Shown here: positions 6,210 through 61,969 of the stretch, piece after piece
Numbering within the stretch: position 1 is the stretch's first letter
Layout: every line of letters begins with the position of its first letter
DNA from: Colius striatus
Taxonomy: Eukaryota > Chordata > Aves > Coliiformes > Coliidae
DNA: 64,000 nucleotides
Assembly (NCBI RefSeq): GCF_028858725.1
Contig: NC_084768.1
Coordinates: 30,782,664 to 30,846,663 of the forward strand
Direction of reading: 5' to 3'
The notes under the pieces: generated by a model
What the model was told of the DNA's origin: nothing
Databases searched by the model: none
What the model saw: the letters and a program-made list of their open reading frames with translations, nothing else
Translations under genes and position numbers: made by a program

Positions 6210-6493
6210 CGAGTTGGGGGTCAGTGGTGCTCCTACTACATCAATGATCTGGTCCTTGGCATCTCCCTTGCCCTCCTCGATGCCGAGCCCTGCCTGGCCA
6301 TCCGGGTGAGTGCCCTCGGCACTGAGGGGGCCGATGCTCCCAGCTTTGGCCAGGGCTTCGTAGCGGTGCCGTAACATCTGCAGCTCGTACTCGCAGTTGG
6401 CAAAGGCCTGCTTCAGCTCATACAGCAGCACCAGGTCGCTCCGCAGCTCGTTGAACATCTGCACAATCTCCTCTGTGGGCATAGGGTTGAGAT
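6210..6493 (-). CDS. DMAP1: DMAP1 coding exon 9 (residues 350-444)
   Basis: The acceptor is TTTTCCTCCATAG. The exon encodes [20 protein letters not shown] through [20 protein letters not shown], then a poorly conserved linker, and ends [13 protein letters not shown] at the donor GTGAGA. Human DMAP1 continues from this same point into a short lysine/serine-rich last exon. Confidence 0.95.
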
Positions 6494-18400: not shown

Positions 18401-21400
18401 TATTGCCAGAATATGAGTTTCCAACACAGCATCCCAGTTCCTCACTTAGTCCTTGTCGGCTCCCACCCTATGGATTCCACAACACTGTTGTGCATATTTG
18501 CCACATAAATCCCACAGGTAAAACAATTCTGATTAGCATGAATTGTCAACTCTGTACCACTTAGCACGCACTAATTGTCCCCATCACCCATATGCAAAGC
18601 AAGTGAGCCTATTAGCTCCTGATTTAAAAACTTGAATAAGGAAGCCAGGTGACTGGCTAAAGGCCACAAATGAATTCATTTTGCTGGGTTGGAGGCAGGT
18701 TTCACATTTCCAAGCAACAAGGTGTTGGTTTTTTTAAACCTAGATCAGTGTTTTCCAATCTGTTTCAATTCACAAAGCACTGGTACTTCTAACAATAGCA
18801 TTTATCTCCTTAAAAATTTCAAGCAGAGAATTGAAAGTTGCTCTAGGCCATCCCAGGAGCTTGGATACTGCAGGCTGAAAGTTGCTGAATCAGACTCAGC
18901 TTATCATTTCATTTTGTGAGCATTAAAGAGAACAGGGAGAAGCATCTTCACACCCATCTTCACAAAGGCTGGGACTTGAACTGCCCATTATGGACATGAA
19001 AAGGCTGCTGTCTTTGCCAGATGGTTCCATCACTGATAGGTTATTGCCCAGCTTCTCTTCCAGAGCGGGTAAAAACCCGAGAAAATATCAACCATCTATT
19101 TTTCAAAATCCAAATCGATCTCCACAAGTTATTCTATTTACCTTGGTGCCAGAGAACACATCTGCAAGGTCTCACTAAATCTTTACAGACACACTGCGGT
19201 CTTGCCTGTGAGTTCCCCAAAGCTGTAGCCCACTCAAACAGGTAACCTGCCTGCAGATGGTGGCACTGGCAGAGTAAAGAGGATCCCCGGCAGTGACCTT
19301 GCTGAGGCACATCGACACTCAGGGGTACATACAGCATGCCTTGAAGCAGCATAATCCCTAACACATTCCTGTTAACAGGCCCGGGGTGTTTCCAGCATGA
19401 TCTCAAACTATTCTGACATCAAAAGAACATCCCATAAGACAGCCTTTAAAAGCAAGCTAGAAAACGACCATGCCAAGTGAAGGTGCTGGGCAAGGAACTG
19501 CCCAGAGGGTCCAAACCCCTCTGAAAGCATTCAGTAGGTCAGGCAAGCTTAACTTAGTACCCCAAAACCGGTCAGTAGGAGACAGGCGTCAAGTCTTGCT
19601 GATAAAACAGCAAGAAAGTTCTTTTCTCAGGCATCTGTGCAACAGGATGAACAAAGGGGCTTTTCCCAAGCATATTTTCTGAAGATAATGGAAATTGGAG
19701 GGCTAAAAATTGTGTGAGTTTCTGTGTGTCTCTTTTTTTATCCAAGACACAATCCCAACATAAAAGCATCTCTCATCTACAAACATGGGTGCTCGCTGAG
19801 GGCTCTTAGGTTTGGCTAGGAGCTCTGTTTGGACTAAACAGCCCCAATTAGGTCTGTCCCGTGTGTTTAAGAGCAGAGCAAGCACATCAGTAACAAACCC
19901 CAGCGAGTTCAGGTGTCCCTGCAAGGAGATGAGCTGGCTTTCACAGAGCCAGCATTCCAGGTTTCTGAGTCTCCACATTTATGGAATTCCTTTCTTATTT
20001 TAGAGGCAAGAACTTGACTTTCTTTAGCTATAAAAGGAGAACAAATGAGGAGACAGGCAGGCAGACAGAAAGACATTAACAGTAGTCCCAAGGGACCAGG
20101 ACAACAGCTCACCCTCTGGCTTCGAAGCGTGACACCTGCAGATTTGAAGTCAGGAAACTTGATGCCAGCAGTCTCAGGAACAGCCTGAAAGAGATTGAAA
20201 CAGGATGTGTTGATGGAGGAAACACAAAACCCACAAGATTTCATACAGAGGCTATCTGAAGGGGAAACTCTGTTTCCTATGACAGAGAACCACCTGCCAC
20301 AGCCACATGTCGGAGCTGAGGCAAGAGGAAAATCCCAAGCAATGGCATTCAATGGGAAAATCCCAAGCAATTCACTGAGAGAAAAATACCCCAGTTCAAA
20401 GTATCTTTGAGAGGCCCAAACATTTCTGGTTGGTTGGCTGAAATGCACTGCTCTGCACAGAGCCTTACACTCATCCACACAAGGATAAACCCTAACCCTA
20501 AATGGTACTGCCTACACTAACACAGCCACATTTGCACAGTATGATCCTTATCTAACTTAGGCACATTTCAATGATCAAAACAGCCCAGGACTTCCCTAAA
20601 TCTTGGCTTTTGACTGTAATTCCTCTAAAGAATGAGCTGAGAAAGCTCTCATCTGTCCAGGCATGAGCCCACTAATGAGGATGTAAGGACTGCACCCCTC
20701 CAGGAAGGCCTGCTGTTTATACATGTTTTGTCATTTGTCCACATTAGACAGGTTTTCTTCTTCCCACTTCACATTTTAAGCAGAGCAATAAGTGGGGGGA
20801 AAAAATGCAATCCCTTAAAAATCTGTGTCGCTGAGCAAAGCACAAGGTGAGCAAACTCTTAAATTATTAAAGCAGGCTGGCTGTGGCTCTGTGCACTCAA
20901 CAGTCCCCTGAAGGGGTCAGTGATACTCATGGTTCAGTCTCAGAATCGCCACAACCTTTACAAAACAGATACTTAATCATGCTTTTCCCCAAAAGAAGAG
21001 TCACCTCAAACCTCCCCATTTCTCTGGAGACAGCATTTGCATTGCTGCTCCCACATTTCTCTGCAGAGCCTCTGCAGCTTGCTCTTCGTTTGTTACAGAC
21101 AGAGCTGAGACTACCTGGGCTGCCACAAGATCATAAGAGATGCTGAAGGACAGTGACTCAATTCCTCAAGTTCCCTGCCAGTGACTCTCACATCTCTACC
21201 AGCTTTCCCTACCTCTCGGTTTTGAGGCTGCACCTTGCAAACTGCTTTGCATGGCCAGGCCTACATTTGTTTTTCAGTTACCTGTGCTAAGTCCAATAAA
21301 CAAAAGTCCCAGGAAGAGATTTCTAAATTGGACCATGGTGGAAAAATTATTCTGTACCAACCTATCACCAGGGCTCGTGAACTTGTAGGGATCACTTTGA

Positions 21401-24400
21401 TCTTTGGTAGAACGTGGCCTCCCTGCTTGGATTATTAGAGACAAAGAAGGCTGCAATCAAAACCCAATCTCTCCATTTCCTTTGGATTAAGGCTGCCTTT
21501 CAGACTGCCCCAGTTCTGCCCCCCAGCCTGTCACTGAACACCCTGACACAGCCAGGAGGGTAAACCAGCACCACTGGCTCGGCTGAGATACCTGCGACTG
21601 CGCTCGGCACAGAAGCAATTAAATGGGTCCTTTTGCCTCGCGTGCCTGTACATGCTGTAAACGCTTCAACCTCAATTGACTCTTTGGTAAATGATTTTCC
21701 TTTGTTGAAATGATGCTGATGCAGCTCCTGATTCAAATTCTTAGTTAAAATGCAATTTTTTTCTTAACATTTCCCGGCTATAGTTGGTAATTGACTCCTA
21801 ATGGACTCTGTCATGGTTGAAATGACGCCAGTGCAACAACAGAAACTGCTTCTCTGCCCACCCTGGCGTGCCTATCCCCTCTGTGCCTGCACACAGGCAC
21901 CAGCCAACAGGTAATATATAGGGCTGGACTCCTCACCTTGGCACCCTCAGCATCTTTCCAGCCCCATTCTCCATCACCACCACGAATGAGAAGCTGCTCT
22001 CTTTAGAGCGAGATATGCCAGCCATGGCTGAGCTTTACCACATGCAAAAGGTGTCCAGTGCTATTAATTACATAGAGGGGCAAGGGGGAAGCCAAAACAA
22101 TGTTTTAAGGAAGTGCTGGCCACTAGGCACACTTCATGAAGCAGCAACTGTCCAGCACTCACTGCCTCTTTCCCTTCCCTGCACAAACCCTTTCTTTCAG
22201 AGGACAATGGCACAAGTGTTCTCTGTTCACAGGGTGGAGGCACAGGAATTCCCAGGGACTCACTGGAAACATCTGAGATTTTGTAACAGCCCTTTCCTAC
22301 TCAAGGTGCTGAATTTAGTTCAGTGCACTTTGTCCTCCCTGCAGAAAGGGAAACTGACGTGACATTAAATGGGAATTGAAAGGGGTGTTCTGGGCTCACA
22401 CTTTAGCTCACCTTGGGAAGAAATAAGAAGTAATAGCTCTCAGAACACAAGAGTCCCACAGATCTGATCCCACAGATCCTTATCTAATCACAGGTAAGGA
22501 TCAGGAGAGAGGCATTCACTGAGCTTGGGGAGATACTGCTGAGACCCAGGAGTGGGGAAGGAAAGGGAAACATGGACTAGAAAAAGAAGGTAGGTGAAAG
22601 AGAATGAGTTTGTAGGACAACTCTGCACAGCAGTACCAGAATATCCTTGGGAGAAGCAGGGACACAGACAGATGCTTCTCCCTGCCATGAGGTATGAATA
22701 GCTGGCAACATTTCATCCCGTTTCTCAGGTAGGGAAAGGGAAACAGGACTTAAACCATCATTTTTCAAATGGGAGAGAGACAGAGAGCACACCAGGAGAC
22801 TCTGACAAGAGACTGTGACAATGACTGCTTTCGATCAATCTGCCTTCCAGAAGATGTAAAAAAGCATCTGCCAGAAAGCAGCCAACAGCTACTCTGCCCA
22901 GACAGAGCTGGTGGCCTGATCCCAGTAGGACTGCTGAAGGAAATGTGTTACCCAGCCAGAGCATACTTGGGGGAAAGGAAAAAGAAAGGAAATAAAAGAC
23001 AAATGTTTACAGGCTTCTCTGTCTCCTTCTTCTGCGGCAGCTTCTTCTTGGGAGCCTTGCGCTCGGCACGTCTCTGCTCAGTGGTGGTGTCAGCAGCTGT
23101 GATGAGCTTCTGCAGGTCTTGGGTTCTCTTTTCTCTCTCTTTCTTCCTGGTTTCGATCTTGCGGAGCTCTTGGATGAGGTATTCTTCTTCTGCCACCTGC
23201 AGACCAGAGCACGCAAAGGCAATCAGAGCTGCGGAGGCGGCCGAGCAAGGCAAGAGGGCCATCTACTGCTAAAAGGTCTGCTCTGGGCAAGGAGAGACTT
23301 CAAACTCCCCTGCCCAATATCTTGGATCTGCAGAGCTCTTTATGCTCTATAGTCTTACCCTGAACGCATGGCAATGCCAGTCTATAAACTGGCAGGTACT
23401 GAATTACAACATTCACGATGCATCCTTCAGCAGAATCCATAAATGATTAATCTCACGTCCAGACAAAGAGACCAAGGGGATAGATTGGGGTAAAAAAGGC
23501 CAAATCCACTCTAGTTACGAATGCAGTGCTGTGAAAAGCTAGTTCTCCCCCTAGACATAGCATGTAGAACCTAGAGTGACTATGCCTGGTATCTGCACAG
23601 CTGTCAACATGGGAAGCACAGAGTCACTACAGGTATGAAGCTGTCATTAGAGGGAATCACCAACAGAAAAGGATGCTCTCCCCCAGCCTTTGGGGCACAC
23701 ACAGTTTCTTAACCTCTGTATCCTGAGACTGTTACACAACTTCAATGAAAACTAAACATGCAGATTTACAGTCCTTGATATTTTCTGGCAAGATTTTTAC
23801 TCTCACAGAACCATCTTCCCATGGGACTCAGGGACTCTCATAAGGACAGCTACCTGAGAGCTTGTTTCTATTCAGAGGGTTGTACTTCTCAAAGAGGTGT
23901 TGGCAGTCACCAGAGACCACAACTGCTCACCTAGACCTCTCTCCTATGTGGCCAGATTTCTCAGTTATTCTCCTTTTATATCCCTTAAAATGTCATCAAC
24001 TCAACTACGAGTTGCTCTTTTCTTGTCCAGTCTTTCCCTTCTCCACTCTCTGGCCTATTTAATTCATCTCCTGATTCAACTTATCATAAATCAATCTTTT
24101 GGTGCAGTGATGCTTTCTTCCCCAAGTTACCTGCTCTGGTGTCCTATTGTAGAGCCTTTCCAGCTGTTCCTTCCTTCGCCTCTCATGGCCAGCATCAAAG
24201 ACTGGGATTTTCAGGTCTGTGCCTGGAGCAGCACGAACATTAGCCAGCTTGGCACAGATGTGATAGTATCTTTCTTTCAAGTCCTCCACTGATCTTTTCT
24301 GTGGAAGACATCACAGGAGAACATCATTATGGAAGAACCAAACAAAACCTTGTACAGAAGCAAGCTAAGGACCACTGGCTGAAGGATGTCAAACAGGGTA

Positions 24401-27400
24401 CAAGACACAGTGCCCAGGAGGAATATCAGAAGGGAGCTTTGCCAGTCCAGGTGGAACCTCAGGGAAGAGGGAGTTTCTCAGTGAACCACATGAATTAACC
24501 AACATGGGTTCACAGCTACTGCTTTAAAAACAGCCACCAAAGGGTCCAACAACAGAGCCAAGGGTTAGAGACAATACAGCAGTGAAGCACTCCCAGATAC
24601 AAGGATAATTAGAATCACAGAATCATTACAGCTGGAAAAGACCTTCAAAGTCATCGAGTCCAGCCACTAACTTCACACTGCCAGGCCCATCACTAAACTA
24701 AACCATGTCCCTCAGCACCTCAGCTGCATGTCTTTTAAATATGTCAAGGGATGGTGACTCCACCACCTTCCTGGGCAGCCCATTCCAATGCCTAATAACC
24801 CTTTCAGTAAAAAAGTTCTTCCTAATCTCCTACCTAAACCTCTCCTATTGCAACCTGACCCCATTTCCTCCTGTCCTGTCACTCATTACTGGAAAAAGAT
24901 CGACCCCTACCCCACTAGTGGTAGAGAGTGATCATGTCTCCTCTCTCAGCCTCCTCTGCTCTAGGCTAAACATCCCCAGCTCCCTCAGCTGCTCCTCATA
25001 GGAAGAGAAAACCTGTCAACAGGAAACTCTGTCAACAGGAAACACAGGAGGCCTCATACCTGAGCTGCTCCAAACAATGGCCATTCCAACCATAACCAAG
25101 GAGGCATCAACTGCAACTATTCATTGCCCATCGTTATATAGAGTCTGAGCTGTGCTCCCTGATTCCAAAGGTGTTTGGGCTGCCCAGATGAGAAGATTCT
25201 TGTTATTTCACTTTGCTACAGGCTCTTCAGGTGAACATTTCAGAAGGCAACAGAAACCTCCAGCACTCAGCTGTTCTATAGGAGTCATATCATTTACCCT
25301 TGTCACCAGGAGCAGTAGAACCAGCAGTTACACGAGATTTATGATCAGAACACCAAGGCTGGATTTCCAGACCACTGACGGTTCCTCCTTCACAATAGAG
25401 AGAAATCTGCACCAGGTCAGACCACAGGTCAGGAGCAGCACCAGAGAAAAATCACAATTCCCAAGGACTGCTGGCAGACTCTTCTCCCAGAGCCTAGACT
25501 GGATTCCAGGACACCTATCCTACTCAGCTAAACAAACTTCCCAGCTGCCTTATCTTCAAGGAGCAATCAGCTGCTCTCCTGGCAGGGTCAAAGCTTGTAA
25601 CTTGCTAATAAAACACAACAGGGAATGAGCACAAGTCACAGTGGATTTCATTACAAACAAAGCAAGCAGCAACGCCCTGTGCTGGAAATTCAATATTCCT
25701 TGCTGCCAATAATTCATTATTTTCCCCTAATTAAGTTGATATAAAGGGTAATTTGGTCTTTGCAGTGCCGTAGCAGGGGGGTTGCTGGCAGCAGCTTGGC
25801 CCTGGGGACTCACCTTGAACTGCTGGTGATCGTAGCGGTCATGAATCACCACGAAGCGCAGATCAAAGCGCCGCGCCAGGTCAAAGAGGTGGTCTGTCTC
25901 GGCCTTGGTCCACGCGTCGTCGTGGAGATACATCTGGTACTCCTGCTCTGAGTAGACAGGTACCTGCACTGTCTGTGCAGAGAAAAAGCAGAGAAAACAG
26001 TGGCAGCTCTCCTGCAGCAATGCCCTTCTCTCCAGGCGGGAGGGGCTGAGATGCCCGAGGTGAGAACAAGGGCAGCACACTGACAGGAGGGGGCTGCCAG
26101 GACCCTGAGCAGTGAATGGGTCCCAGTCGAAAAGATGAGGAGGAGGGAGAGCACTTGATAAGGAGCAACGTGTGATCTCAGGGCCACAAATGTGATGTTC
26201 TGGGAGCCTACCAGGAACTACTGCCTCGGAGGCCGAAGTGTGTTTCAGGCAGCTGACAGGAGTGGAGGTCAGCAACCCACATCCTGACTTAGAGGTTTCA
26301 AAATTATCAGGCTAATATGACAGCAAAACCGAGGCTGAGGCAGCTCCCCTGCACTCCTCCCATAGGATGGCACCAGGATCTAGACATAAACTGCTCTGAC
26401 AGTCAACTCTTCACTTGGGTTGGGACACATTTGCCTGTATGGGAAGAACGGGAAAGACAAGGAGTGGTAGTTCCCAGCCTTCAGCACGCCTCTGCTTTGG
26501 TACACAGCCCACTTCTTTCATGTCTGCTGCAGACAGTGCCATGAAGATCTGAAAGACTGGGTGCTGTACAATTGAGGGCCATGAACTTGGATAATAACTT
26601 TGTCCCTCCCTTCCTCATCCACTCTTTCTCTGGCAAAGCCACAGAGCCAAAAGCCAGTTGAATCATCAGAGGTGCCTAAAAGGCCAAACCCACACCACAG
26701 TCCCAAGCCTGGAACTGCCAAGGGCTCTATCCAGAACACAAGTGTGTCACATGAGGACTAAAGGAACAGTAAAAATATTTAGTGTATTAGGGAAAGTCCT
26801 AGCACATGGTAAAGCAAAAGTGCAAACAAGCTTGTGCTTTCCTCCCTTATCCCCTCCCATCGCTCCTGCAGGGGAACTTTGCTCAGCCTGAGGAGGTCCT
26901 GTCCCCACAAGAAAACTGTGCCTGTGAGGAGCACCCATGCTTCAATACCTCTGTGCCTTCCTGAGCCCTACACCAGAAAAGTCATGCTCATGAACTCCAT
27001 ACAGCTCAGAGGAGCACTTCTGAGCCACCATATAACAGCCTCTTTAGGTCTCCTGGCCTTCTTCCATCACTTAGACACAGAAGCTTAAAGGTGAAGAGTA
27101 TCTCTTGGGGATGCACTGCACCTCAACCTTCAAGTACCACTCCCACCAGCAGAAAAGCCACCCTACTAGACACTGCAAGGATGTCCCAGGTACATACATC
27201 ATGAACAAAAGGTATTTTCTAGAGTGGCAGACACATATGGAAAAGAGCCAGCAGAGCCCTCTGCAGTGGATGGAAGCAAAGGTAGCAGATGCCCAAGGAG
27301 CAGTTCCCAAAACATCCTCAGCCCTACTCCTGGCTGCTCAGGTGAGAACTGCTGAGAGGCACAAAGGTGGGAACTCATCAGATGGAAAGTTTGAGCCAAA

Positions 27401-30400
27401 CGTTATAGTGCAAAGGCAACATAGCCATGAAAATGCAAATATGCCCCTCAGAGAGGGATTTCCAGCAGGCACTGGCAAGGTTTCAGTTGCACAACAAGAC
27501 CTTGGCAGGAACACCAACTACGATTCTACTAACCCCTGCTCAAGAAAGATGAACTGAAATGAGAACAAGTACAGAGAAGAGCACTGAGGATGAGTAATGG
27601 GGTGGGGAGCTTTTCTTCCCACAGCAGACTGGAAGGAAAGGAAATCTGAAAGGGATTCTGACTGCAGGCTTCAAGTATGCTAGATGGAGTGAGAGGAGTA
27701 CCCACAGGAACAAAAGAACAACTGAAATAAGGACAAAGAAGTCAGCTTGCAAAGAAATGCCAATTTAACATGGAAAATTTAACCTGGAAATGAGAAATGG
27801 AGCAGAGACAGTCTGGAAGAGCCTCCCAAGGAAGCACAGGGGCAAAAAAATCCAAGTGCTTTTTAAATGGAACTTGATCAGTTTATGAAAGCAACTGGAT
27901 GGTCCAAGACCTGAAAGGGTCACGAAGAGGATTCAATGGCCCAGAAAACCCCTCTCAGTCCGTTTCACACCATAAACACACACAATGATGGGCCTTAAAT
28001 TAACTGAAACTGCTCTGGAAAGATCCTGAAGCCATGAGGCAGTTTTGTGAAAACATCAGCACAATGCCTAGTAGTGCTGAAAAGACAAACTGAGTAGTAA
28101 AAATCATCATGGAAATAAAGAGAAACACGGGCAAGGTACAAACCTGCCATGCTTCCATAAGTGAAACACTCCCTCCTAGTCTACCCACTTCAAAAGAAAG
28201 GATATTTGGGAACAACAAGGGTGAGACAGAGCACAGAAGAGCAGATGTGTGTCAAATTATGGAAAGCACAGTACACAGCAAAGACAATTTACTACCTTAT
28301 GTAACACAGGATCTGAGAGGCACCAAAGGAAACCCCAAGGCATCAATTTAAAAGGAACAGAAGAAAGCACCTTTGCACATCACACAAAATTAATCTGAAG
28401 AACTCATTACCATGGGGTATTCACAGAGCAGCTTCCTGTTCTGAACATACTTATCAAGAATTACTAAAGACAAACTCCAAGCTAAGAAATCCTGAAGCCA
28501 AAGCCCACCAAAAACTAGGAAAATGCATTCTGTATTTGCCCCATTCTCGTGCTCTTTCTCTAAGCTTTTACTAACAGCAGCCAGAAAGAGAATATTGGCT
28601 GAGAGAGGCCTTTGCTCTGACACCAGTGGACCTGCTTTTATGTTCCTATTTCACACTCTTGACTGAGGCTCGGTGTACACTGTGAAACCTACATTTACAT
28701 TTTGGATCTCACAGTGAGGAGAAGGAATTTGTTTTGGAGGCTGGAAGCACAGAGAAAAGGCAAAACAACTGGGCAGAGACGCAGGAATCAGATTAAAGAG
28801 CTTGAGAGATCAATAGCACAGAATGCAGAGGAAAAGGGGAACAAGAGACTAGGGCAGAGGTATTGAGTATGAGAGAAGGGACTCACAGAAGAGCCTGGAA
28901 AAGTAAGTAAAAGCCTCTGATTCAACAATTATCTGCAAAACTCCTCATTGGTGCCTTCTTCCCTCTCAACCATGGATCCACAAGGGTCACAACTTGTTCC
29001 AACTAGTATTTAATTGTGCCTGTGCAGATGGTAGAGGTCTGTACCACTATCTAAAGGTTGCAGCCTCGCTCAAGGCTCTCCTGTCTGTCAGTTCACGGCA
29101 CATGATAAAGTTAAGGAAACGAGAATCGTATAATTACAACACCCATGCGTGGCCACCTCTGATAAACTCGGTTGAACTCAGTCAAAAACTGTTACAGCAG
29201 TAGAGTCTTTGAGACAATTACACTCCCAAAGTTTCACAGTTAGGTAGGTGCCTTGACTAAGTGAGTCATGCTTCAGACTTCCACCCTAGACATCAGAGAA
29301 GAGATACCACAGGAGGCTCTTACCAATGTCCCAGCAAGAGGAAAAGCATCAGTCAGAGCTTGAGCCTTCTAACATATAAGGTCAACCGACCACTTAACTC
29401 TGCAGGAAGCCAGGCTTTGTTAGAGCTGATGCTCTGTGGGTTACAACACTTTAAATTTGTACACAGTGCTACGCAAGCAGAGCTTTTGTGGAATCATGTC
29501 AGCACACACTTTTCTCCCCCTCTTCGGATTTGCATCATGAAGGAGGCTAAATTACATTACAGAGGCACCCTAACTCTGCTCCTTCCTAACTTTGGAGGTT
29601 CTGACTTTGAAGTATAAATCTTGATGTAGTTTTCTTTGTGTATAGACATGAAAGCCCCAACCACTCAAAGCAGATACATCTGGGACAAAAGACAGCAGGA
29701 GATTACAACAACACGTTGTGGCAATTGTAAGATGCAAAGAACAGGGTTCTGCACCGCACTGATACCACAGGAGCAATTTCAGAGGGAGCGCAATGTAACT
29801 CAGCCTCTGGGCTGGAATCTGGCCAAGGGGCTGCAAGACAGCTTTTTGGCCACCAAGCTCAAGCCATCTTTTTCATATTGAGCAAAATAACAAGACTTAT
29901 GACTTTAATGTCTCACTCTTTTACCACCCAGAGCCTGTAATCAGTGGGAGGATGTCGGTTAGGAACTGAATCAGACAGCAGAGTGCCTCCTCACCAAATC
30001 AGCAACTGCACACCTGAAACATGGGAGTTCTGGCAAAGCTCTGACCACATACTGAGCCCACTGAGCTTGAATGATTTGGAGACATCACACTCTGTGGTCA
30101 CATGGCCATGCTGCAAGTTAAAATGCAATTGCCAAATTAACTCAGCCTTCAGTTGTTGAAAGAACCAACTTCCTGTCTGGACATTCAAGAAGCTGACCCA
30201 AGGGTATTTTCCAGATGCTATTTATAGGCTTTTGCTTGAAAGTGCTCCCACTTACTTTATTGAACCTGGCAAAAGGGTAGTCCTTCCCTTCCTCTGCTGC
30301 TCTCCTCCAGTGGTAAAACATGGCTCCATCTTTTCTTGCTGGGTTGGTGAAAGGCATCCACTTCCAAGGCCGAACTTTCTTGGACCCCAGTTTTGCTTTG

Positions 30401-33400
30401 ACTGTTCGATAACCCTGAGTTGTATCACTTGGCAGCAGCGGAGGTGCATCCCTGTGGTGGACAAAAGCACTGGCTGAACAGAAGGAAGAAGTAGCCTGGG
30501 ACAAACTCAAAGACATTTCAGATTCGGAGTGGCATCTGCTGCCACAATGTTGAGGTGGGAAAACCTGAATCTAAGCTCTGTCACAGGTTTTGCCCTTCCC
30601 AGACTGCAATGCTTGCCACACCAGAGGGCAGAACACACAGCACGGATGGGTTTGAGCAGAACCATCTGGAAAGCAAAGTGTGCAACAGACCTCTGAGGCA
30701 AGGGCATGTTCCATAACGAGCTAAATACAGGCTATAGCAGAACTCTTTGCAGAAATAAAAGTAGGTGCTAATCCCAGTGACAAATAAAAGAATCACACAC
30801 AGAAGGGTAAGAACACTGCCTTGATTGCACTAGATTATTGTGCCTGCACCCAATTCATCTCCCACATAGAGCAAGCTCCTCAATTTTACACGAGAGAAGA
30901 CAGACACTGCCCATGAGTGTCTAAGAGAGAAGGGCACAAGCATGGGCCAAGGACAACAGGGAATCAGTCTGGGAGGGAAGACTGCCCGTGGTTTCACGAG
31001 GATGCTGCCCTGCCACAAAAGCCCAGGCTATCCCACAACCTGCACAGATGACCATAAGCTCTTACTTTTTGTCAGAGTAGAGGAGTGCATAAACTTCTCG
31101 GTGCATTCCTTCTGGCCTCTTAAATGTCAATGTCTCTGAAGATTTCTTGGATTTTTTCTGAAACAAAAGAATTGCATTTTAGATTCAGAAGTAGCAGTCC
31201 CCGAGGGAACATGAAGCTACACAACAACCTGGCACCCTGTGATGGCTTTCACTTTTATCTGCTTTTAGACACCTTGAATTTCTCCTGGAAAGTGCCTGTT
31301 CCTGGTGGAAGACACTGACAGACAAAATGTTCCTACTTTCAGCGATAGCACTCACCAGTACTCAGACACTTGTTGCTGCTGATAACACACACATAAATTC
31401 CAAGTTGTTGAACATCTGGCTGTAGTTTTCAGGGGCTGGTTCACTAAGCCTTTTTTTTTTAACTAGGTAAGCACTGTCCTCACGTGAAGGGATCAATGTA
31501 TGTAATTAAGCAATCCTCTACCTTTTGGAGAGGATAATAAGAAATGTCTTCCCACCCTCTCTTAGGTTTTGTCACTTTTTTCTGCAGCAATTTCAGTTGT
31601 TGTCAGTTGTGACCAAGTCCCATGTCAAAACTACCGGCACCACCTACAAAAATAAAGCCCTGTTCCTACCTCCACTCTCCCATTTATACAGCAAAGAATT
31701 TTCTTGATGCAGTTTCTTCACACTAGGAAATCAGTGCAGGCAGAGGCCCCTAAAGTCTTGTCATAACTGATGGCTTCTGAGACAAGAGTACACCTCATAT
31801 CACATATACAAGTTTATAAAGTAATGAGCTTTGGATTCAGGTAGATACAGGAACAGCTATGTTATCAAGGGACACTTTATTTATGGGGGCCAAACTTATT
31901 ATGTGGAGCCTTTGCTCCAATGTGTCATCTTTATACATACTAGCCATGTCACTACTTTAGAGTACTTGTTTACCATATTGCTATCAACTTTTTAATCACA
32001 TTATGTGGCAGTAACAAAAACAACACTGTACCATAAATTGTATTAAATCTAGCCACCTTTATCAAGTAAATTCAAAATTCCCATTGAAGAACAAAATCAA
32101 ACATCCGTCATAGAAACACTGAACGGTGCGGGTTGGAAGGGACCTTTAGAGATCATACAGTCCAACCTCTTGCTAAAGCAGGCCCACCTAGATCAGGTCA
32201 CTCAGGAACACATCTAGGCAGGTATGGAAACCTCCAGAGAAGGAGCCTCCACACCCTCCCTGAGCAGCCTGTGCCAGGGCTCCCTCACCTCAACAGCAAG
32301 TAAGTTTTTTCTTCTGTTTAAGTGGAACTTTTTGTGTTCCAGCTTCTTTCCATTACCCCCTGTCCTGTCATTAGATACAAAAAAAAGTGATGCCCTAACA
32401 TCATCTTAGACTACAACTGCTTTCCATAAAACTTGATGACAGACATTAATTACATCAGCACCTTTTCACTCCTAATCAAACACCTTTCTCCCAGCACATC
32501 CATCGCTGTGCCCGGGAGCCAACTGAGGCAGTTACCCCCAGGTCACCACACACCCTGTTTGAACACAGGCTCCTGGAATTCCCCCAAAGTTCCCAGATTT
32601 ATGAAAAGTTAATATCAGCAGACCAGAGATCAGCTCAGCCAGCTATTTTAGGACTTGAGAACAAATGACTTTGTCCTGCTGATTTAAATGTTTCTATGCC
32701 TAGTAATTTTTCTTTTAACATTCTCTCTCACTAATGGAGTGGAAAGTACTTCACAGTTCTCTTGTGATTTAAAGACATCAATCTGATTCTTTCCTAATTG
32801 AGACCAGATCTATTTCCTGAGCAAGAGCTGCACTGTTATTAGCAATTTTGCTCTCTCCACGTGATAATGGCTTATACCTTTGGTTTGACTTGGTTTCTGT
32901 ACTTTGCAGAAATTCAACGTTTCACTCATTTCTGCTCTTCTCCCAGAACCTCTCACTGCACCTCTCCCTTTCCATTACATTTTAGGAGAAACCCATTTTA
33001 TTGTCTGCTCCAAAATAGCGAAAGGCAGCCACCAGTACTCCTTCAGCTGTCTGCTAGCTAACAGACAAACACATCTGAGTCAAAGAACTTGCAGCTCCAA
33101 CACTCTGCAGCACAACATCGCAGGCCTAATCCAGCCGAGGAGCTGCTCACCAGACACGTTATTCACCAACACAGCTGACAACTGGGGATTTTAACATTGC
33201 AGCCTTTAAATTAACTCATCAGTTTTCCATTACACCAATTATACTGTGTTTCCCATCCCCAGCAAGGTAGACATAAAGCCACTGTGCTGCTCTTCAGAGA
33301 CAAACACATTCCAGAAGTACTTTCAGGGGTAGGGTGGTTGCATATGTTTGGGTTTGTTTTGGGTTTTGTTTCCCAAATAAATACACAGGCTTTATTTCAA

Positions 33401-34791
33401 ATCAGACTATTTCTGTACCAGAGAGCTCCTGGGAATTTCACCTCCTGCAGCATATTTCCAAGCACCTGCACATCTCATCACTACTCGTGAATTGTCCTTC
33501 CAAACACCTTGCAAAGCACAGGACAGCCAAGACCTTGCCCAAATATAAAACACAGAAGGCAACAACACACACCTTAGCATATTACCACACAGGACACAGC
33601 AGATCATAGAATCACCGAATGGGACACAGGGATTGGAAGGGACCTTTAGAGATCATCTAGTCCAAAACCCCTGCAAAAGCAGGTCCCACCCAGATCAGGT
33701 CACACAGAAATGCATTCAGGGGGGTCTGGAAGATCTCCAGAGATGTAGCCTCTACATCCTCCCTGAGCAGCCTGTGCCAGGGGTCCTTCACTTCAACAGT
33801 AAAATAGTTTTTTCTTATATTTAAATGGAACTATCTGTGTTCCAGCTTCTTTCCATTACCCCCTGTCCTGTCACTAGGTACAACAGAAAAAAGGGATGCC
33901 CCAGCCTCCTGATATCCACCTTTTACACCCTTGTAAATATTAATGAGATTCCCCTCTCAGTCTCCTCCAGACTAAAGAGCCCCAGTTCACACAGCCTTTC
34001 CTCAAAAGGAAGATGCTCCAATCCCCTGATCATCTTGGTGGTCCTGTGCTGGACTTTCTCCAGCAGTTCCCTGTCCCTCTTGAGCTGAGTGGGACAGTAG
34101 AGGGGGAGCAGAGCCTCCCTCGACCTGCTGACCACGCTCTTCTTGATGCATCCCAGAATGCCAATGATAGTCTACGTCCTTAACAGAGCTTACTAATTTG
34201 CCCCACGCTCCTCTATGCAACACATCTCAAACCCCAGCCAACACCTTCCCTACAGGAGGAATGCTCCCTTGAAAACATTTACCATTCCATCAAGCCAGAT
34301 AATGCTTTTTTCCTTCTAAAAGCAGACTGTGTTCTATGATTGCTATCTGTTTAGGGGCTACATGGTAAACACACTTCACGCTTATTCCACAAAATGAGAA
34401 TTTCAGAGACAGCTGAAAGTGTCCTGTGACAGGCCCAGCTACCAGGACGGTATCTCCAGCTCAGATACTGCCTCAAATGCCACAGTGCACTTATCCAAGA
34501 ACACCAGGAACCCAGGAGTTTGGCCCTCCAGGCATTTCCTGATGCTCCCAGGAGGCTCAAAAATGAACAGACTACAGCAGGAACACACTTCACTCCATCT
34601 TTTCCCACAACATTCATCCCAGACACCACAGGCAAGGTCAAGCAGCGCCTAGCAAACACGCAGCAGCCCCTCAGGGCAGTGCAGCTCACCTTATCCGAGT
34701 TGATGATATCCTTTTTGTTGATGGTGCCCGTGTTCTCCGACTCCACACCGCCCAGCTCCAGGATGTCCCGCACATCCGCGCCTGTCGCCAT
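6210..34791 (-). CDS. DMAP1: DNA methyltransferase 1-associated protein 1 (nine coding exons, C-terminal exon not found)
   Basis: DMAP1 is a nuclear subunit of the NuA4/TIP60 acetyltransferase and SRCAP remodelling complexes and a co-repressor partner of DNMT1. Joining nine GT-AG exons gives 444 residues that track human DMAP1 (467 aa) almost residue for residue. It starts [20 protein letters not shown]/Myb-like domain lies at about 149-199 ([18 protein letters not shown]). A basic, charged helical segment likely to form a coiled coil lies at about 240-300 ([15 protein letters not shown]). The conserved C-terminal DMAP1 domain runs through [20 protein letters not shown] at about 358-377. All exon junctions keep phase. 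The final ~19 residues (the KRRESASS...KKAKKP tail of human) are absent from visible sequence; without a further exon, exon 9 would read through into the intron and stop at 6147-6149 after about 18 unrelated residues. Identification is secure; only the C terminus is unresolved. Confidence 0.97.
6494..8353 (-). other. DMAP1: DMAP1 intron between coding exons 8 and 9
   Basis: A 1.86-kb intron with a long polypyrimidine stretch at about 7550-7590, homopolymer A runs near 8140 and a CT microsatellite at 8304-8333. No gene is seen in it. Confidence 0.85.
8304..8333. repeat. CT microsatellite
   Basis: GTGTGT followed by an imperfect (TC)n run, about 30 bases, sits 20 bases from the donor of DMAP1 exon 8. 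Confidence 0.8.
8354..8426 (-). CDS. DMAP1: DMAP1 coding exon 8 (residues 326-349)
   Basis: A 73-base exon after an 11.7-kb intron encodes [20 protein letters not shown] then ELGV, leaving one base. The acceptor is GTGTTCCAG and the donor GTGAGT. A CT microsatellite lies just downstream on the plus map (8304-8333). Confidence 0.95.
8690..8925. promoter_or_regulatory. Putative conserved non-coding element in DMAP1 intron
   Basis: Unique, low-CpG sequence with ATTTACA, CTAAT and ATTAGACTCAT-type motifs and no homopolymer decay. The CNE call rests on texture only; an alignment to other birds and to mammals would decide it. Confidence 0.25.
11145..11420. promoter_or_regulatory. Putative conserved non-coding element in DMAP1 intron
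   Basis: AT-rich unique block with several TAAT/ATTA cores, ATGCAAAATG (octamer-like) and a TTTATGTGG run. It begins and ends abruptly within more ordinary sequence. It has no coding frame. Confidence 0.3.
12440..12740. promoter_or_regulatory. Putative conserved non-coding element, dense homeodomain motifs
   Basis: About 300 bases contain repeated CTAAT, ATTAATTG, GCTAATTGG and CATTAAATG motifs plus TGATTTATGC, with very low CpG and no simple repeat. It is the densest cluster of homeodomain-type cores in the window. Confidence 0.3.
16060..16660. promoter_or_regulatory. Two AT-rich blocks with homeodomain motifs, putative regulatory
   Basis: Blocks at about 16060-16160 (AATTATTAATTGCTCC, AGTAATTACATTTATC) and about 16505-16660 are separated by an imperfect CA run near 16460-16485. 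Function is not demonstrable from sequence alone. Confidence 0.2.
20113..20184 (-). CDS. DMAP1: DMAP1 coding exon 7 (residues 302-325)
   Basis: A 72-base exon encodes [20 protein letters not shown] followed by RSQR. The acceptor is CTCTTTCAG and the donor GTGAGC. This is a conserved block of the DMAP1 C-terminal domain. Confidence 0.96.
20185..23010 (-). other. DMAP1: DMAP1 intron between coding exons 6 and 7
   Basis: A 2.8-kb intron without an evident transposon. A unique AT-rich block at about 21610-21840 resembles a conserved non-coding element. Confidence 0.8.
21610..21840. promoter_or_regulatory. Putative conserved non-coding element with SOX-like and homeodomain motifs
   Basis: Unique block with CCTTTGTTG (SOX/TCF-like), AATTGACT twice, CCTAATGG and a pair of similar TTGAAATGATGC / TTGAAATGACGC words about 110 bases apart. 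No coding potential is seen. Confidence 0.28.
23011..23196 (-). CDS. DMAP1: DMAP1 coding exon 6, charged coiled-coil-like segment (residues 240-301)
   Basis: The exon has 186 bases in phase 0. It encodes [20 protein letters not shown], then a run of alternating K/R and E/Q residues typical of a long helix, ending [13 protein letters not shown], a likely nuclear localisation region. The donor is GTAAAC. Confidence 0.97.
23197..24130 (-). other. DMAP1: DMAP1 intron between coding exons 5 and 6
   Basis: A 0.93-kb intron; nothing recognisable beyond splice signals. Confidence 0.85.
24131..24298 (-). CDS. DMAP1: DMAP1 coding exon 5, end of SANT domain (residues 184-239)
   Basis: The exon has 168 bases in phase 0. 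It encodes [20 protein letters not shown], completing the SANT-like domain, then the conserved [20 protein letters not shown] segment. The donor is GTAACT. Confidence 0.97.
24611..25005 (-). repeat. CR1 LINE fragment (reverse orientation, with 3' end)
   Basis: Begins with AGAATCACAGAATCATTACA, the complement of the CR1 3' terminal octamer repeats, then reads through the complement of the 3' UTR (TTGGAAAAGACC-type words, 'gagtccagcc'). It lies within the DMAP1 intron between coding exons 4 and 5, opposite to CR1 sense but therefore in CR1-sense orientation with DMAP1 transcription. Confidence 0.92.
25814..25972 (-). CDS. DMAP1: DMAP1 coding exon 4, start of SANT domain (residues 131-183)
   Basis: The exon has 159 bases in phase 0, flanked by a CACAG acceptor and a GTGAGT donor. 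It encodes [20 protein letters not shown], then the SANT-like helix [20 protein letters not shown], and ends [10 protein letters not shown]. Confidence 0.97.
25973..30255 (-). other. DMAP1: DMAP1 4.3-kb intron between coding exons 3 and 4
   Basis: No gene, RNA or clear repeat is recognised. Sequence is ordinary intronic with short open frames only. Confidence 0.8.
30256..30451 (-). CDS. DMAP1: DMAP1 coding exon 3 (residues 65-130)
   Basis: The acceptor is TCCACCACAG and the donor GTAAGT. The first base completes a lysine codon; then [20 protein letters not shown] through PFARFNK follows. It includes the highly conserved [20 protein letters not shown] segment. Confidence 0.97.
31066..31157 (-). 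CDS. DMAP1: DMAP1 coding exon 2 (residues 35-64 plus two bases)
   Basis: The acceptor is TTTGTTTCAG and the donor GTAAGA. The 92-base exon encodes [20 protein letters not shown] and continues to SDK, matching the basic N-terminal stretch of DMAP1, and leaves phase 2. Confidence 0.96.
32108..32409 (-). repeat. CR1 LINE fragment (reverse orientation)
   Basis: Starts at the 3' tail complement (CATAGAAACACTGAA) and carries GGTTGGAAGGGACCTTTAGA and the following ATCA...AGTCCAACC words shared with the copies at 33.6 and 35.1 kb. About 300 bases of CR1 3' end remain. Confidence 0.93.
33604..34165 (-). repeat. CR1 LINE fragment, longest copy in the window (reverse orientation)
   Basis: About 560 bases: 3' tail complement (ATCATAGAATCACCGAATGG), the GGAAGGGACCTTTAGAGATC word, then the complement of the terminal ORF2 region and UTR. 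It aligns by eye with the 32.1-kb copy over its first 300 bases and with the 1.9-kb copy over the rest. Confidence 0.94.
34690..34791 (-). CDS. DMAP1: DMAP1 coding exon 1 (residues 1-34)
   Basis: The ATG is at 34789-34791 and begins [15 protein letters not shown], the conserved DMAP1 N terminus. The exon ends at GAT AAG followed by the donor GTGAGC, leaving phase 0. The same exon carries 5' UTR up to 34845, where a strong acceptor stands. Confidence 0.96.
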
Positions 34792-43545: not shown

Positions 43546-43721
43546 TCACATGTGCCGCTTCATGTGGAGGGCGAGGTGGTCGGAGCGGGAGAAAGCCCGT
43601 TCGCAGAGGTGGCACTGGAAGGGCCGGTGCCCCGTGTGCTTGCGGTAGTGCCGGGTCAGCTCATCGGAGCGGGCGAATTTCCAGCCACAGCCTTCCCAGG
43701 TGCAGTGGTAGGGCTTCTCAC
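43546..43721 (-). CDS. KLF17: KLF17 coding exon 3 (fingers 2 and 3)
   Basis: The acceptor CCTCTGCAG precedes GTGAGAAGCCC, completing Gly of TGEKP. The exon encodes [20 protein letters not shown], continues through [13 protein letters not shown] and ends [10 protein letters not shown] with stop TGA at 43546-43548. It is nearly invariant against KLF2/KLF4 fingers; the final residue Met is as in KLF2. Confidence 0.97.
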
Positions 43722-45849
43722 CTGCAGAGGAGAGGGGGTGTCAGTGGGCTTAGAGGTCCCCATCGTCCCCCTACAACCTTCACCCCAATGCTCTCCTGCT
43801 CGGCACCCTCTTCTCAGGAGAGATCCTCACCCACCACTTAGGAGTACTCATCCACACCTCTGACTAACCCACCTTTCCTTTTATCCCGATCTTCCTGCTC
43901 TTCTCCATGTGCCTCACATGAGGATCATCCTCTGGTCACCTCTGCCTCATTACAGCACCCACCCCATGCGCCTTTGCCCTGCTCCAAACCATAGGTGCCC
44001 ACCCATCCCAGCTCTGGGGCTGCACCACGTGCCTGGTCCCACCTATCTGAGGGAGGTCTCACCATACACCCCCAGTCCATGTCCCCCCCTCAGCTCACCT
44101 CCAGCCCAGCTGGGGAGCTTCTCCACGTCCCGCCCTACCAGGCACCCCAAGGCCAGGTCAGGTGTGGCCTCACTCTGTGCTTTGGTCCCTGCGCACGCCG
44201 CACCACGGGGGTCCCGCGGATCACTCCCGGGGGCCATTCCCATTCGCGCATGCTGCCCTGCACCTAGGACCCCTCCATGCAGCCCCGTGCCGGCTGCGGG
44301 GTCTTCTCTAGTTGCTCCCACCCGGCCCCACCACAGTGACCTCCTCCGTGCACTCGGGGACTGACCGCGGGGCTCTTTTCCGTGCGCCTCCGGTGCCACC
44401 TTCCCCGGCACTGCTCCGCACCGCCTGAAACCGCACCGGAGCGGGTTCACGGCTCTCCCTGCGCGCCCAGCTCCCCTCGACTGAGGCTTTTTTGCACATC
44501 CCCCGCCGCATCTCCTCGCCGCTCCCACGGCGCATCCTTACCTGTGTGGGTCCGCATGTGAGCCTTGAGGTGGGAGCTTTTGGTGTAGGTCTTGCCGCAA
44601 CCCGGGTATTCACAGTTGTGCGTGGCCGTCCGCTTGCGCGCCCACGAACGGCGGCCGCGTTTGGGCTTGCAGTCCTCGGGGGGAGCCCCGGCCGGGAAAT
44701 ACTCCAGCACTGGGGAGTTGGGCGGCGTGACCAGCAGCCCGGGCAGCCCCGCTGGGCCCGGCCCCGGCCCCTTGAGGGGCTCCCTAAAAACACTGAAGTG
44801 TCCATGAAACTGCGGTGGCGGCGGCTGGGGAGCGAAGTGGGGCGCGTAGCGGTGCGGGGCCACGGCGTAGTGAGGCGGCAGGTCGGCCAGGAGGTGGGGG
44901 TCGGCGCCGGGCAGCGGCTCCTCGGGGGGCCCCAGGCGGCCGTGGGCGAAGCCCGGGTAGGGCAGCGGTGGCCCCGGCACCGGTCCCGGCCCCGTCGCCA
45001 CGCGTGGCTTGTGCTCGCCGCCGCCGGGCCCCAGGTAGTCGGCGGCGGGGGGCAGCCCCAGCATGCAGGCGCGCTCCTCCGGCTGCTCCTTTTTGATGCG
45101 GGGCCCGAAGGGCTGCGCGGGGTCCAGGGGCAGCGGGCGGGCCAGGGACGGGTGCAGAGGCGGGTGGTGATGGGGGTGGGAGTGGTGAGGGCCGCCGGGC
45201 ACCCGCAGCTCCGTGTACTCCCTCCGTTGCAGATCGCAGTGGCCGGGCAGGTCCGGAGTGAGTAGCTCGGCTACGTAGCTGTGGCTCTGGCCCTCGGGAT
45301 AAGGCGCCGGGAACTTGCCCGGAGTGGGGTAGGAGCCGTCGCTGTCGTAAGTAGTGCCGCAGCTCTCGGGGGTCTCGGGCAGAGGGTAGTTGGGGCCGGG
45401 CGGCCCCTGCCCGCCGCTGCTGGTGTGCGCCAGGATGAAGTCCAAGTCCACGAACTTGCCCAAGTCGTCTTCCTCCCGCTTGACGGCGGCGCCGCCGTCC
45501 TGCTGCAGCATCCTCTGCGGGGAAAGAGGGGCGTTAGGACCGACGGGGCAACGGCTGCGGCGGCTCCCGCCGCTCGGGGCGGCGGCTCCCCCCGACTCGT
45601 CCGACGGGTTGGCACCGCTTCGGCTGCACCGCCCCCGGGCCGCCCTTCGCCGGCGGGAGGGGGCCGCCCCCACAAGCCCGCCTGAGCCCTTGTCCCAGGA
45701 CGCTGTGTCCCGTACCCCCCCCCCTTGCCGCACCCACCCTTCTCCTCGGTACTTACGTGGAGCATATCGGCGGGCCGCTCCTCCAGCGGCAACAAGTTGG
45801 CGAAAGTCGAGATGGAGGGCAGCGTGCTGTCGTCCACGGCCGCCGCCAT
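43546..45849 (-). CDS. KLF17: Kruppel-like transcription factor, KLF2/4/17 subgroup, syntenic KLF17
   Basis: Three exons join in phase to a 413-residue nuclear C2H2 zinc-finger activator that should bind GC/CACCC boxes. Visible motifs: N-terminal [11 protein letters not shown] (11-21), as in KLF2/4; SUMO consensus VKRE (42-45); acidic activation motif DLDFILA (54-60); VAELLTPDL (112-120), a KLF2/4/17 signature; His/Pro-rich stretch (140-153); second SUMO consensus IKKE (171-174), matching the KLF4 site; TPPNSP repression/phosphorylation-type motif (294-299); [16 protein letters not shown] (314-326); three C2H2 fingers at 332-354, 362-384 and 392-412 with TGEKP and TGHRP linkers and helices ending [16 protein letters not shown] and RSDHLALH. 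Paralogue choice rests on synteny: human KLF17 adjoins DMAP1 in the same order. By sequence alone it could be called KLF2-like or KLF4-like. Confidence 0.9.
43722..44541 (-). other. KLF17: KLF17 intron 2
   Basis: 820 bases, GT-AG, no recognised element; GC content rises toward exon 2. Confidence 0.9.
44542..45514 (-). CDS. KLF17: KLF17 coding exon 2 (residues 32-355, activation region, NLS and finger 1)
   Basis: The acceptor CCCCGCAG precedes AGG ATG CTG. The 973-base exon is GC-rich and encodes the Pro/His-rich transactivation part, the basic NLS and finger 1 ([20 protein letters not shown]...). It ends at ACACAG with donor GTAAGG, the conserved KLF splice point inside the TGEKP linker. Confidence 0.95.
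45757..45849 (-). CDS. KLF17: KLF17 coding exon 1 (residues 1-31)
   Basis: ATG at 45847-45849 in a good initiation context (purine at -3, G at +4) begins [20 protein letters not shown] and ends DMLH at the donor GTAAGT. The exon/intron position is the same as in KLF2 and KLF4. Confidence 0.92.
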
Positions 45850-46245
45850 GGCTGGCGGTGCGGTGGGGCGCGGGTGCCGCGGCCGGGCGCGCTGGGGCGG
45901 GGGGGTGCGCGGAGCCCGGCACCGCTCCGCTCCCCGCGGCGGCCGCAGCGCTGCTCTGCGCCGCCCCGCGCCCCTAAGCTGTTAACGGCATGCCTGCGCC
46001 CCCATTGGCCCGCCCGCCCTTGATATTCGCCGCCGCCGCCCGCCATTGGCTGCGCCGCCGCCCCAGCCACGCCCCTCCCCTCGCGGGCCGCCCCGGCGGG
46101 CGGGGGTCGGCGCTGCCCCCTCCGCGGCTGCGGTGCGAGGTGCGGACCCGCGCCCGCCGCTGCCTGCCCCCGCGCCGGGAGAAGGGGCGAGGCTGCCGGA
46201 TCCCAAAGCTCAGGGTCTCCTGGTTTTCCCCGCGATGACAAGTGG
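45850..46245 (-). promoter_or_regulatory. KLF17: KLF17 promoter CpG island with paired CCAAT boxes and GC/CACCC boxes
   Basis: The CpG-dense region extends from the gene body upstream. On the minus strand there are CCAAT boxes at 46004-46008 and 46045-46049, exactly 41 bases (about four helical turns) apart, a GGGCGGGCGGG Sp1-type run between them, and a GGGGCGTGGC box at about 46067-46076, the binding type of KLF proteins themselves. No TATA box is evident. Confidence 0.65.
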
Positions 46246-47228
46246 GGCAGAGACGGCCCGACCGACAGTTTGCCCCCGCGCCGTGAATGGGGAGGGGGGG
46301 CTGTAGGTCGCAGGGCTGGGGACCTTTGGCTTCGTGTCCCGACTGGGGCTGGGGCGATGGCCGTGGCACACGCCAGCGCGTGTAGGGGTGAGCGAGGGTG
46401 TGACGGGGAAATCTGGTGTAGGGTTATGGGTTACAGCTGAGAGCCCACCGGCCGGTGAGCTGGCCTCAGCGCTCGCCGTGGGGGCTGCAGTGGGTGCTTG
46501 TGCCAGCCGGGGAGCTGGGCCCAGGTGGCTGAGCCGTAATTCCACCACACCAGTAGCTTAATGTGACTGCGTTCGTGCCCCGTGCCGGTGCTGTCAGTGA
46601 GGCAATCAGGAGCCCAGAGCACACCAGCTCCCATCTGGCCGCACGCAGGGTGCGTGTGTGAGCTCAGATAACAGCCGGTCAGACCCTGCTGGGGGGCTGG
46701 CACCCTGCCTGCACCATCTCATCTTGTCCCACAGCCCCCACGGGACGTTTGTCTGCCCTGTCTGGGGACCGCTCTGCCGTGGGGGGCACAGGCTGGTTGG
46801 CCAACCCTATGTGCCCCTTAGAGTCCTTGAGACAATGCTGTGCCTCTGAAGACTTCCCACAGTGGGGGACATGAGGGTACCGAGATGTCCCACTTCGCAG
46901 AAGACATCCAGGTACCCCACTCTCTGCTGGGGAATTGGGACATGTCCCAGCGTGGGGTGCTGGACAGGCCTCCCCAGGAGCTGTCTGGTGCCCTGTCCAT
47001 CTCAGAGTAAGACCTTCTCCCCTTGGCCCCCATCCAGCCAGTACTAGGAATGGCCCTACTACTGTTGAGTTTGTCAAGAAGCAATGTCCCTTATCTCCTG
47101 GAAGCCTGTCTCCCTGCTTTCTGGGGCTTTCCATCCCCAGATACCTTTCTAAGAACTGGGGCTGCTGCCTGTAGTGTTGAGAAGCAAGGAGTCAATTTAA
47201 AAAAAAACAAATATAAACACCAAAGGTG

Positions 47229-60480: not shown

Positions 60481-60552
60481 TGTGTGTGCATGTAAGGGGC
60501 ACACATACATTCAGATGAGAGCATTCATGAGGCACATACATGTATGGGGGAC

Positions 60553-61905: not shown

Positions 61906-61969
61906 CATGTCTGTTCTCCCGTGCCACATGCACACACGTGCGTGCCCCTGGCAGCACTCCCACCCCTGT

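What the first reader, a model, noticed from the sequence alone, without database searches (positions are those of the whole stretch)
43546..45849. Bird KLF17 that retains the full ancestral KLF2/4-type architecture
Seen: a three-exon, 413-residue KLF with N-terminal STFANLL motif, DLDFILA activation motif, VAELL signature, two ΨKxE SUMO sites, TPPNSP, a KLF4-type NLS and near-invariant fingers. Known: in human this position beside DMAP1 is KLF17, a fast-evolving protein with a divergent N terminus, and the fish gene once called klf4b is its syntenic counterpart. Inference: the bird gene preserves the pre-mammalian state and could reveal the ancestral role (erythroid or early embryonic) of KLF17.
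Basis: partly seen in the sequence, partly recalled or inferred. Interest (0 to 1): 0.7.

Follow-up and report, generated by a model that had tools for sequence, protein, structure and literature searches.

The report
Bird KLF17 gene, already known
This is an intact, ordinary bird copy of KLF17, a DNA-binding gene switch already described in chicken; it keeps features that the fast-changing mammalian version lost.

Summary
Its neighbours (ERI3, DMAP1, SLC6A9) are those of vertebrate KLF17, and this genome has separate KLF2 and KLF4 genes. Other birds could not be searched.

The gene is not new. Published papers already place chicken and frog KLF17 between SLC6A9 and DMAP1, identify fish klf4b as klf17, describe non-mammalian KLF17 as not long-branched, and cite chick expression in the blood island.

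Two refinements. 'KLF2/4-type architecture' is incomplete: residues 262-292 match human KLF1 (recalled sequence) and none of the five KLF2, KLF4 and human KLF17 sequences compared. No KLF1-like finger exon was seen in this genome, so KLF17 may do KLF1's work in birds; this is inference. Klf17-null zebrafish still make primitive red cells, which weighs against a simply erythroid ancestral role.

The parts
45757..45849 (-). KLF17 coding exon 1 ([14 protein letters not shown])
   Evidence: in frame, GTAAGT donor
44542..45514 (-). KLF17 coding exon 2 (SUMO-type sites, DLDFILA, VAELL, KLF1-like block, TPPNSP, NLS, finger 1)
   Evidence: matched at 752.5 bits in the own-genome search
43546..43721 (-). 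KLF17 coding exon 3 (fingers 2 and 3, stop)
44732..44824 (-). sub-feature of exon 2: residues 262-292, KLF1-like block (coordinates worked out by hand from the exon table)
   Evidence: score 89 against recalled human KLF1, shuffled mean 34.4, 0 of 500 as high; like shuffles against own KLF2, own KLF4 and recalled human KLF2, KLF4 and KLF17
44501..46500 (.). CpG-rich stretch over most of exon 2, exon 1 and the promoter (GC 0.72-0.77, CpG o/e 0.80-0.98 in the seven 500-base windows)
6168..34791 (-). DMAP1 (nine matched stretches, same orientation, downstream of KLF17)
   Evidence: recalled human query; Pfam DMAP1 or SANT_DAMP1_like on four of the five fragments given, three of them above the curated cut-off

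Best explanation
The locus is the bird orthologue of KLF17. It encodes a nuclear transcription factor that binds CACCC/GC-box DNA through three C2H2 fingers nearly identical to those of KLF4 and KLF2. It should activate targets through an acidic N-terminal DLDFIL-type motif and be tuned by SUMO at VKRE and IKKE. Shown: intact gene, conserved fingers, motifs, synteny, separate KLF2 and KLF4 loci. Inferred: DNA target, activation, SUMO control, and use in embryonic blood and early ectoderm. The divergent human KLF17 is the derived form.
For: Gene model. Fingers 79 of 88 identical to solved KLF4, with RSDELTRH and RSDHLALH unchanged. Gene order ERI3-DMAP1-KLF17-SLC6A9, as stated for mammals, chicken and frog in PMC3820594 (passages). 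KLF2 on C31 and KLF4 on C40 are separate genes. Pairing with one KLF4 row is rejected in the 6-row full-length tree: p-AU 0.001 (own KLF4) and 0.0009 (recalled human KLF4). NLS plus fingers: 92 of 100 identical to own KLF2, 90 of 100 to own KLF4, 51 of 99 to recalled human KLF17. Chick Klf17 in the blood island is stated, citing Antin 2010, in PMC6763433 (passages). KLF binding to GC and CACCC sequences is stated in PMC11394431 (passages).
Against: The 9-row finger tree has no starred branch and rejects none of the placements tested, KLF2 (p-AU 0.173) and KLF4 (0.115) included. In the 6-row full-length tree the protein falls beside the two KLF2 rows at 60/27, pairing with own KLF2 is not rejected (0.41), being sister to the two KLF4 rows is not rejected (0.205), and the two KLF2 rows are not resolved as a pair. 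Pre-finger global identity does not separate the candidates: 31% with own KLF2 and also 31% with recalled human KLF17. Sequence alone therefore does not prove orthology to KLF17. Human KLF1, 2, 4 and 17 were typed from recall. No expression data and no second bird genome were available. In PMC5369966 mammalian-rooted sampling put KLF17 in a group of its own, apart from KLF1/2/4 (passages).
Confidence: 0.93

Rival explanations
1. [quoted passage not shown]
For: Residues 262-292 match recalled human KLF1 and none of the five other sequences compared; both have RSWARKR; pairing with recalled KLF1 is not rejected (p-AU 0.407; 0.173); no KLF1-like finger exon was seen elsewhere in this genome; the chicken label is reported in PMC11394431.
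Against: Its position is that of KLF17, not of KLF1 (KLF1's position is recalled). PMC11394431 itself concludes that chicken 'KLF1' is most likely KLF17. Over NLS and fingers it is closer to own KLF2 (92 of 100) and own KLF4 (90) than to recalled KLF1 (84).
Confidence: 0.05
2. It is a duplicate of bird KLF2 or KLF4 that moved here.
For: Near-identical fingers; pairing with own KLF2 not rejected (p-AU 0.41), and the KLF2 rows are not resolved as a pair without it.
Against: The locus is in the conserved KLF17 position, it has introns so it is not a retrocopy, pairing with a single KLF4 row is rejected, and pre-finger identity is 31% to own KLF2 and 35% to own KLF4, while own KLF2 is 48% identical to recalled human KLF2 and own KLF4 61% to recalled human KLF4.
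Confidence: 0.02

Closest known systems
Chicken KLF17 (Antin et al. 2010, not held, nothing seen; labelled KLF1 LOC424577 in PMC11394431; PMC10177326 lists a chromosome-8 KLF as KLF4)
   Same: Same place between SLC6A9 and DMAP1 as reported in PMC3820594; same subgroup.
Zebrafish klf17 (biklf, klf4b) and Xenopus klf17 (neptune)
   Same: Reported syntenic orthologues; non-mammalian KLF17 reported without long branches and grouped with KLF1/2/4 (PMC3820594, passages).
   Different: Reported hatching-gland role in both and lateral-line role in zebrafish (PMC6763433, passages); birds lack lateral lines (recalled). Sequences not compared here.
KLF2 and KLF4 of the same genome (C31, C40)
   Same: NLS and fingers 92 and 90 of 100 identical; ATFA and DFIL motifs and IKxE sites in both, TPPSSP in KLF2, VAELM in KLF4 (letters).
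   Different: Separate loci; pre-finger identity 31% and 35%; neither matches the KLF1-like block better than shuffles.
Human KLF17 (recalled)
   Same: Syntenic counterpart by PMC3820594; recalled fingers 2 and 3 keep RSDEL and RSDHL.
   Different: 51 of 99 identical over NLS and fingers; pre-finger local similarity is reached by 6 of 200 shuffles.
Human KLF1 (recalled)
   Same: PQ[FY]xGHFx[LV]FR ... GPxPGPA block and RSWARKR.
   Different: Different chromosomal position (recalled); NLS and fingers 84 of 100.

Membership tests
KLF/SP family | three C-terminal C2H2 fingers of 23, 23 and 21 residues (spacing recalled) | tested here: met
   three fingers starting at 44614, 43704 and 43614 (minus strand), 23, 23 and 21 residues from first Cys to last His
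KLF1/2/4/17 subgroup | KRGRRSW-type NLS directly before the fingers (recalled) and best finger match to KLF2/KLF4 | tested here: met
KLF17 | position between SLC6A9 and DMAP1 (PMC3820594) | tested here: met
   ERI3 beyond DMAP1 by recalled query
KLF17 | separate from KLF2 and KLF4 in the same genome | tested here: met
KLF17 | clade with other vertebrate KLF17 proteins in a tree | tested here: inconclusive
   only recalled human KLF17, on a very long branch, was available; pairing with it not rejected (p-AU 0.271), no starred branch
KLF4 | nests with KLF4 sequences | tested here: not met
   pairing with one KLF4 row p-AU 0.001 and 0.0009; sister to both rows not rejected (0.205), and the finger tree does not reject it (0.115)
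KLF2 | nests with KLF2 sequences | tested here: inconclusive
   p-AU 0.41 with own KLF2, 0.122 with recalled human KLF2; the three rows are one side of a branch at 60/27; 0.173
KLF1 | position beside DNASE2 and GCDH (recalled) | tested here: not met
   the neighbours found are ERI3, DMAP1 and SLC6A9; the bird region matching KLF1's could not be searched (and repeats unanswered)
KLF17 | expression in embryo or blood | not testable with these tools
   no expression data on hand

The most novel reading that the evidence does not exclude
KLF17 and KLF1 are sister genes, with KLF2 and KLF4 the other pair; bird KLF17 keeps a KLF1-type block that fast evolution erased from mammalian KLF17, and because birds lack KLF1 it serves as their main erythroid KLF.
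Probability: 0.25. Interest if true: 0.45.

Novelty: already known. Interest (0 to 1): 0.18.

Why it matters
Bird KLF17 is a conserved copy of a gene whose human form, reported in the early embryo (PMC12070069, passages), has diverged strongly, so it helps in reading human KLF17. The gene and its expression in chick blood islands are already in print. What could be added is the KLF1-like block and the apparent lack of KLF1, which together suggest a direct test of which KLF runs bird red-cell genes. It also gives a clear case for correcting bird gene labels (KLF1, KLF4) at this locus.

Tried and rejected
KLF18-like or tandem second KLF nearby: none in the window or in the 40 kb beyond its high end (three C2H2-pattern matches in the window, all this gene; four others in L009 and L010 that look like chance). 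The 60 kb fetched on the ERI3 side were not scanned for fingers. Relatives in viral contigs: one pattern match, none confirmed. N-terminal search of solved structures: no match. Erythroid signature in the promoter (20 mononucleotide shuffles): GATA motifs 2 against 1.7 expected in 2 kb and 8 against 9.3 in 10 kb; CACCC-type boxes 7 against 1.45 in 2 kb but 7 against 7.15 in 10 kb, all seven at 45873-46192 in GC-rich DNA; one E-box-GATA composite at 50886 against 0.15 expected; taken as uninformative. Finger-only tree: no starred branch. KLF1's neighbourhood (FARSA and DNASE2 families) could not be searched because the tool did not complete.

Confidence in the KLF2/KLF4-duplicate rival rose from 0.01 to 0.02 and the main reading fell from 0.94 to 0.93 for that reason.

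Full report
What is there. On the minus strand, 45849-43546, three exons (93, 973, 176 nt) with GT-AG introns join into a 413-residue open frame. Pfam finds three C2H2 fingers. Against solved KLF4 (2wbs) the fingers are 79 of 88 identical, and RSDELTRH and RSDHLALH of fingers 2 and 3 are unchanged. CpG-rich DNA covers most of exon 2, exon 1 and the promoter.

Where it is. The window is G000:C12:30782664-30846663 in a 1.21-Gb, 191-contig genome. DMAP1 lies downstream in the same orientation: recalled human DMAP1 matched nine stretches from 34791 down to 6168. Of the five given to Pfam, four matched DMAP1 or SANT_DAMP1_like, three above the curated cut-off and one (24125-24301) below it at 24.2 against 29.1 bits; 30253-30474 had no hit. 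A recalled ERI3 fragment matched two stretches on the plus strand before the window: L048:2237-2362 (42 residues, 79%) and L045:8734-8820 (29 residues, 90%), the latter ending about 1.2 kb from the window's start; this was not checked with Pfam. SLC6A9 lies on the plus strand at C12:30870066-30875152, about 23 kb beyond the window. Pfam SNF matched five of five fragments given, and the one fragment compared with solved structures matched glycine transporter 1 at 5e-38, against 9e-16 for the best other transporter. No other KLF-like finger occurs in the window or in the 40 kb beyond its high end. Order: ERI3, DMAP1, KLF17, SLC6A9, as described around KLF17 in mammals, chicken and frog (PMC3820594, passages).

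Separate KLF2 and KLF4. A whole-genome search listed 121 matches (101 of 1976 first-look candidates scored), and all 30 returned loci were examined. KLF2 is at C31:664638-666045 and KLF4 at C40:36505120 onwards, each with its own N terminus (KLF4 named by its near-identity to solved KLF4, KLF2 by recalled human KLF2). Other finger-2/3 exons at 76% identity or more are C1:41593117, C4:75215605, C1:41805151, C15:10928950, C15:10896098 and C13:29316698; I read these as KLF5, KLF3, KLF12, a KLF5-like gene, KLF8 and KLF6 or 7, by recalled hallmark residues. None looks like KLF1. The 91 matches without a locus include this gene's own exon 1; the others stand at 64% identity or less in the listing.

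Trees. The 100-column tree of NLS and fingers (9 rows, four recalled) has no starred branch; the KLF4 pair stands at 74/96, and human KLF17 is on an extreme branch. None of the five placements of the window protein tested was rejected: with the KLF2 pair 0.173, the KLF4 pair 0.115, human KLF17 0.271, human KLF1 0.173, KLF1 plus KLF17 0.159. In a full-length tree without human KLF17 (6 rows; own KLF4 partial), the KLF4 rows pair at 93/93 and the KLF2 rows are not resolved. Holding the window protein with own or human KLF4 alone is rejected (p-AU 0.001, 0.0009). Holding it beside both KLF4 rows (0.205), with own KLF2 (0.41), with human KLF2 (0.122) or with human KLF1 (0.407) is not rejected; it falls beside the KLF2 rows at 60/27, which is not support. 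So the tree excludes that it is a copy nested in KLF4 but not a KLF2 relation; orthology rests on synteny.

How conserved. NLS plus fingers: 92 of 100 with own KLF2, 90 with own KLF4, 84 with recalled human KLF1, 51 of 99 with recalled human KLF17. Before the fingers, local similarity was reached by 0 of 200 shuffles for own KLF2, own KLF4, recalled KLF1 and recalled KLF2, by 1 of 200 for recalled KLF4 and by 6 of 200 for recalled KLF17. Global pre-finger identity is a poorer guide: 31% with own KLF2, 35% with own KLF4, 38%, 43% and 37% with recalled KLF1, KLF2 and KLF4, and also 31% with recalled human KLF17, probably because these stretches are rich in proline.

A correction to 'KLF2/4-type'. 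Residues 262-292 ([31 protein letters not shown]) score 89 against recalled human KLF1, with shuffled mean 34.4 and 0 of 500 as high. Against own KLF2, own KLF4 and recalled human KLF2, KLF4 and KLF17 they score like shuffles (114, 364, 355, 132 and 446 of 500 as high). RSWARKR is likewise shared with recalled KLF1, where KLF2 and KLF4 have RSWPRKR. The segment was chosen after I noticed the likeness, and KLF1 was typed from recall after the window was read, so this needs a check against a database KLF1. It suggests that KLF17 and KLF1 may be closest kin, or that both keep an ancestral block that KLF2 and KLF4 lost.

What is already known (passages seen unless stated). PMC3820594: chicken and frog KLF17 between SLC6A9 and DMAP1; klf4b is klf17; mammalian KLF17 long-branched, non-mammalian not, grouped with KLF1/2/4; KLF1 called mammalian-specific. 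PMC6763433: chick Klf17 in the blood island, citing Antin 2010; zebrafish null embryos make primitive erythrocytes but lose the hatching gland; it also names a zebrafish klf1, at odds with a mammal-only KLF1. PMC12070069: Xenopus and lamprey klf17 in blastula and neural crest; lamprey has klf17 and klf2/4. PMC11394431: chicken 'KLF1' on chromosome 8 most likely KLF17. PMC10177326: lists a chromosome-8 KLF as KLF4. PMC10982350: a sterlet Klf17 mis-annotated as Klf4. PMC4628740: a review that calls zebrafish Klf4 the orthologue of KLF1, so the KLF1 link has been drawn before in function. PMC5369966: KLF17 in a group of its own, apart from KLF1/2/4. Antin 2010 itself is not held. Two searches aimed at a bird KLF1 loss or a KLF1-KLF17 sister relation listed three papers, seen as listings only, none relevant by title; this is not proof that it is unpublished.

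Mechanism. Most likely a CACCC/GC-box activator with an acidic DLDFIL motif and SUMO control, as for KLF1, KLF2 and KLF4 (family knowledge, recalled). The bird role in embryonic blood is inferred from the cited expression report and from the lack of any KLF1-like exon. That lack is provisional, because only part of the candidates was scored, assemblies can miss GC-rich genes, and KLF1's neighbourhood could not be searched. The zebrafish mutant shows that an erythroid requirement is not universal.

Verdict. Interest is low, with a modest open lead in the KLF1-like block.

Noticed in passing
60556-61905: Minisatellite of 116-base units, about 11.7 copies, 92% matches; it overlaps and probably explains the sharp GC-skew peak (0.38) at 60001-62000.
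   Followed up: no
54526-54780: 51-base tandem repeat, five copies, 94% matches.
   Followed up: no
8429-20104: DMAP1 spans at least 28.6 kb here, with one intron of about 11.7 kb between matched stretches.
   Followed up: no
L023 (G000:C15:10928950) and L027 (C15:10896098): A KLF5-like finger exon lies about 32 kb from a KLF8-like gene, mirroring KLF5 and KLF12 about 212 kb apart on C1; looks like an extra KLF5 paralogue kept in this bird (names from recall).
   Followed up: no
G000:C9:29932271-29932843 (+) and C9:30456537-30457109 (-): Zinc-finger hits with matching E-values in mirrored order: an inverted duplication or an assembly effect; C15:18790754 and C79:25745 likewise look like duplicate copies.
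   Followed up: no
45873-46192: Cluster of seven CACCC-type boxes and two CCAAT boxes (46008, 46049) just upstream of the KLF17 start, possible self- or KLF-regulation; CCAAT is not in excess over 2 kb (4 against 3.1).
   Followed up: partly
literature, chicken chromosome 8 KLF: Two chicken KLF family papers label a chromosome-8 KLF as KLF4 (PMC10177326) or KLF1 (PMC11394431); probably both are KLF17 (that they are one gene is inferred).
   Followed up: partly
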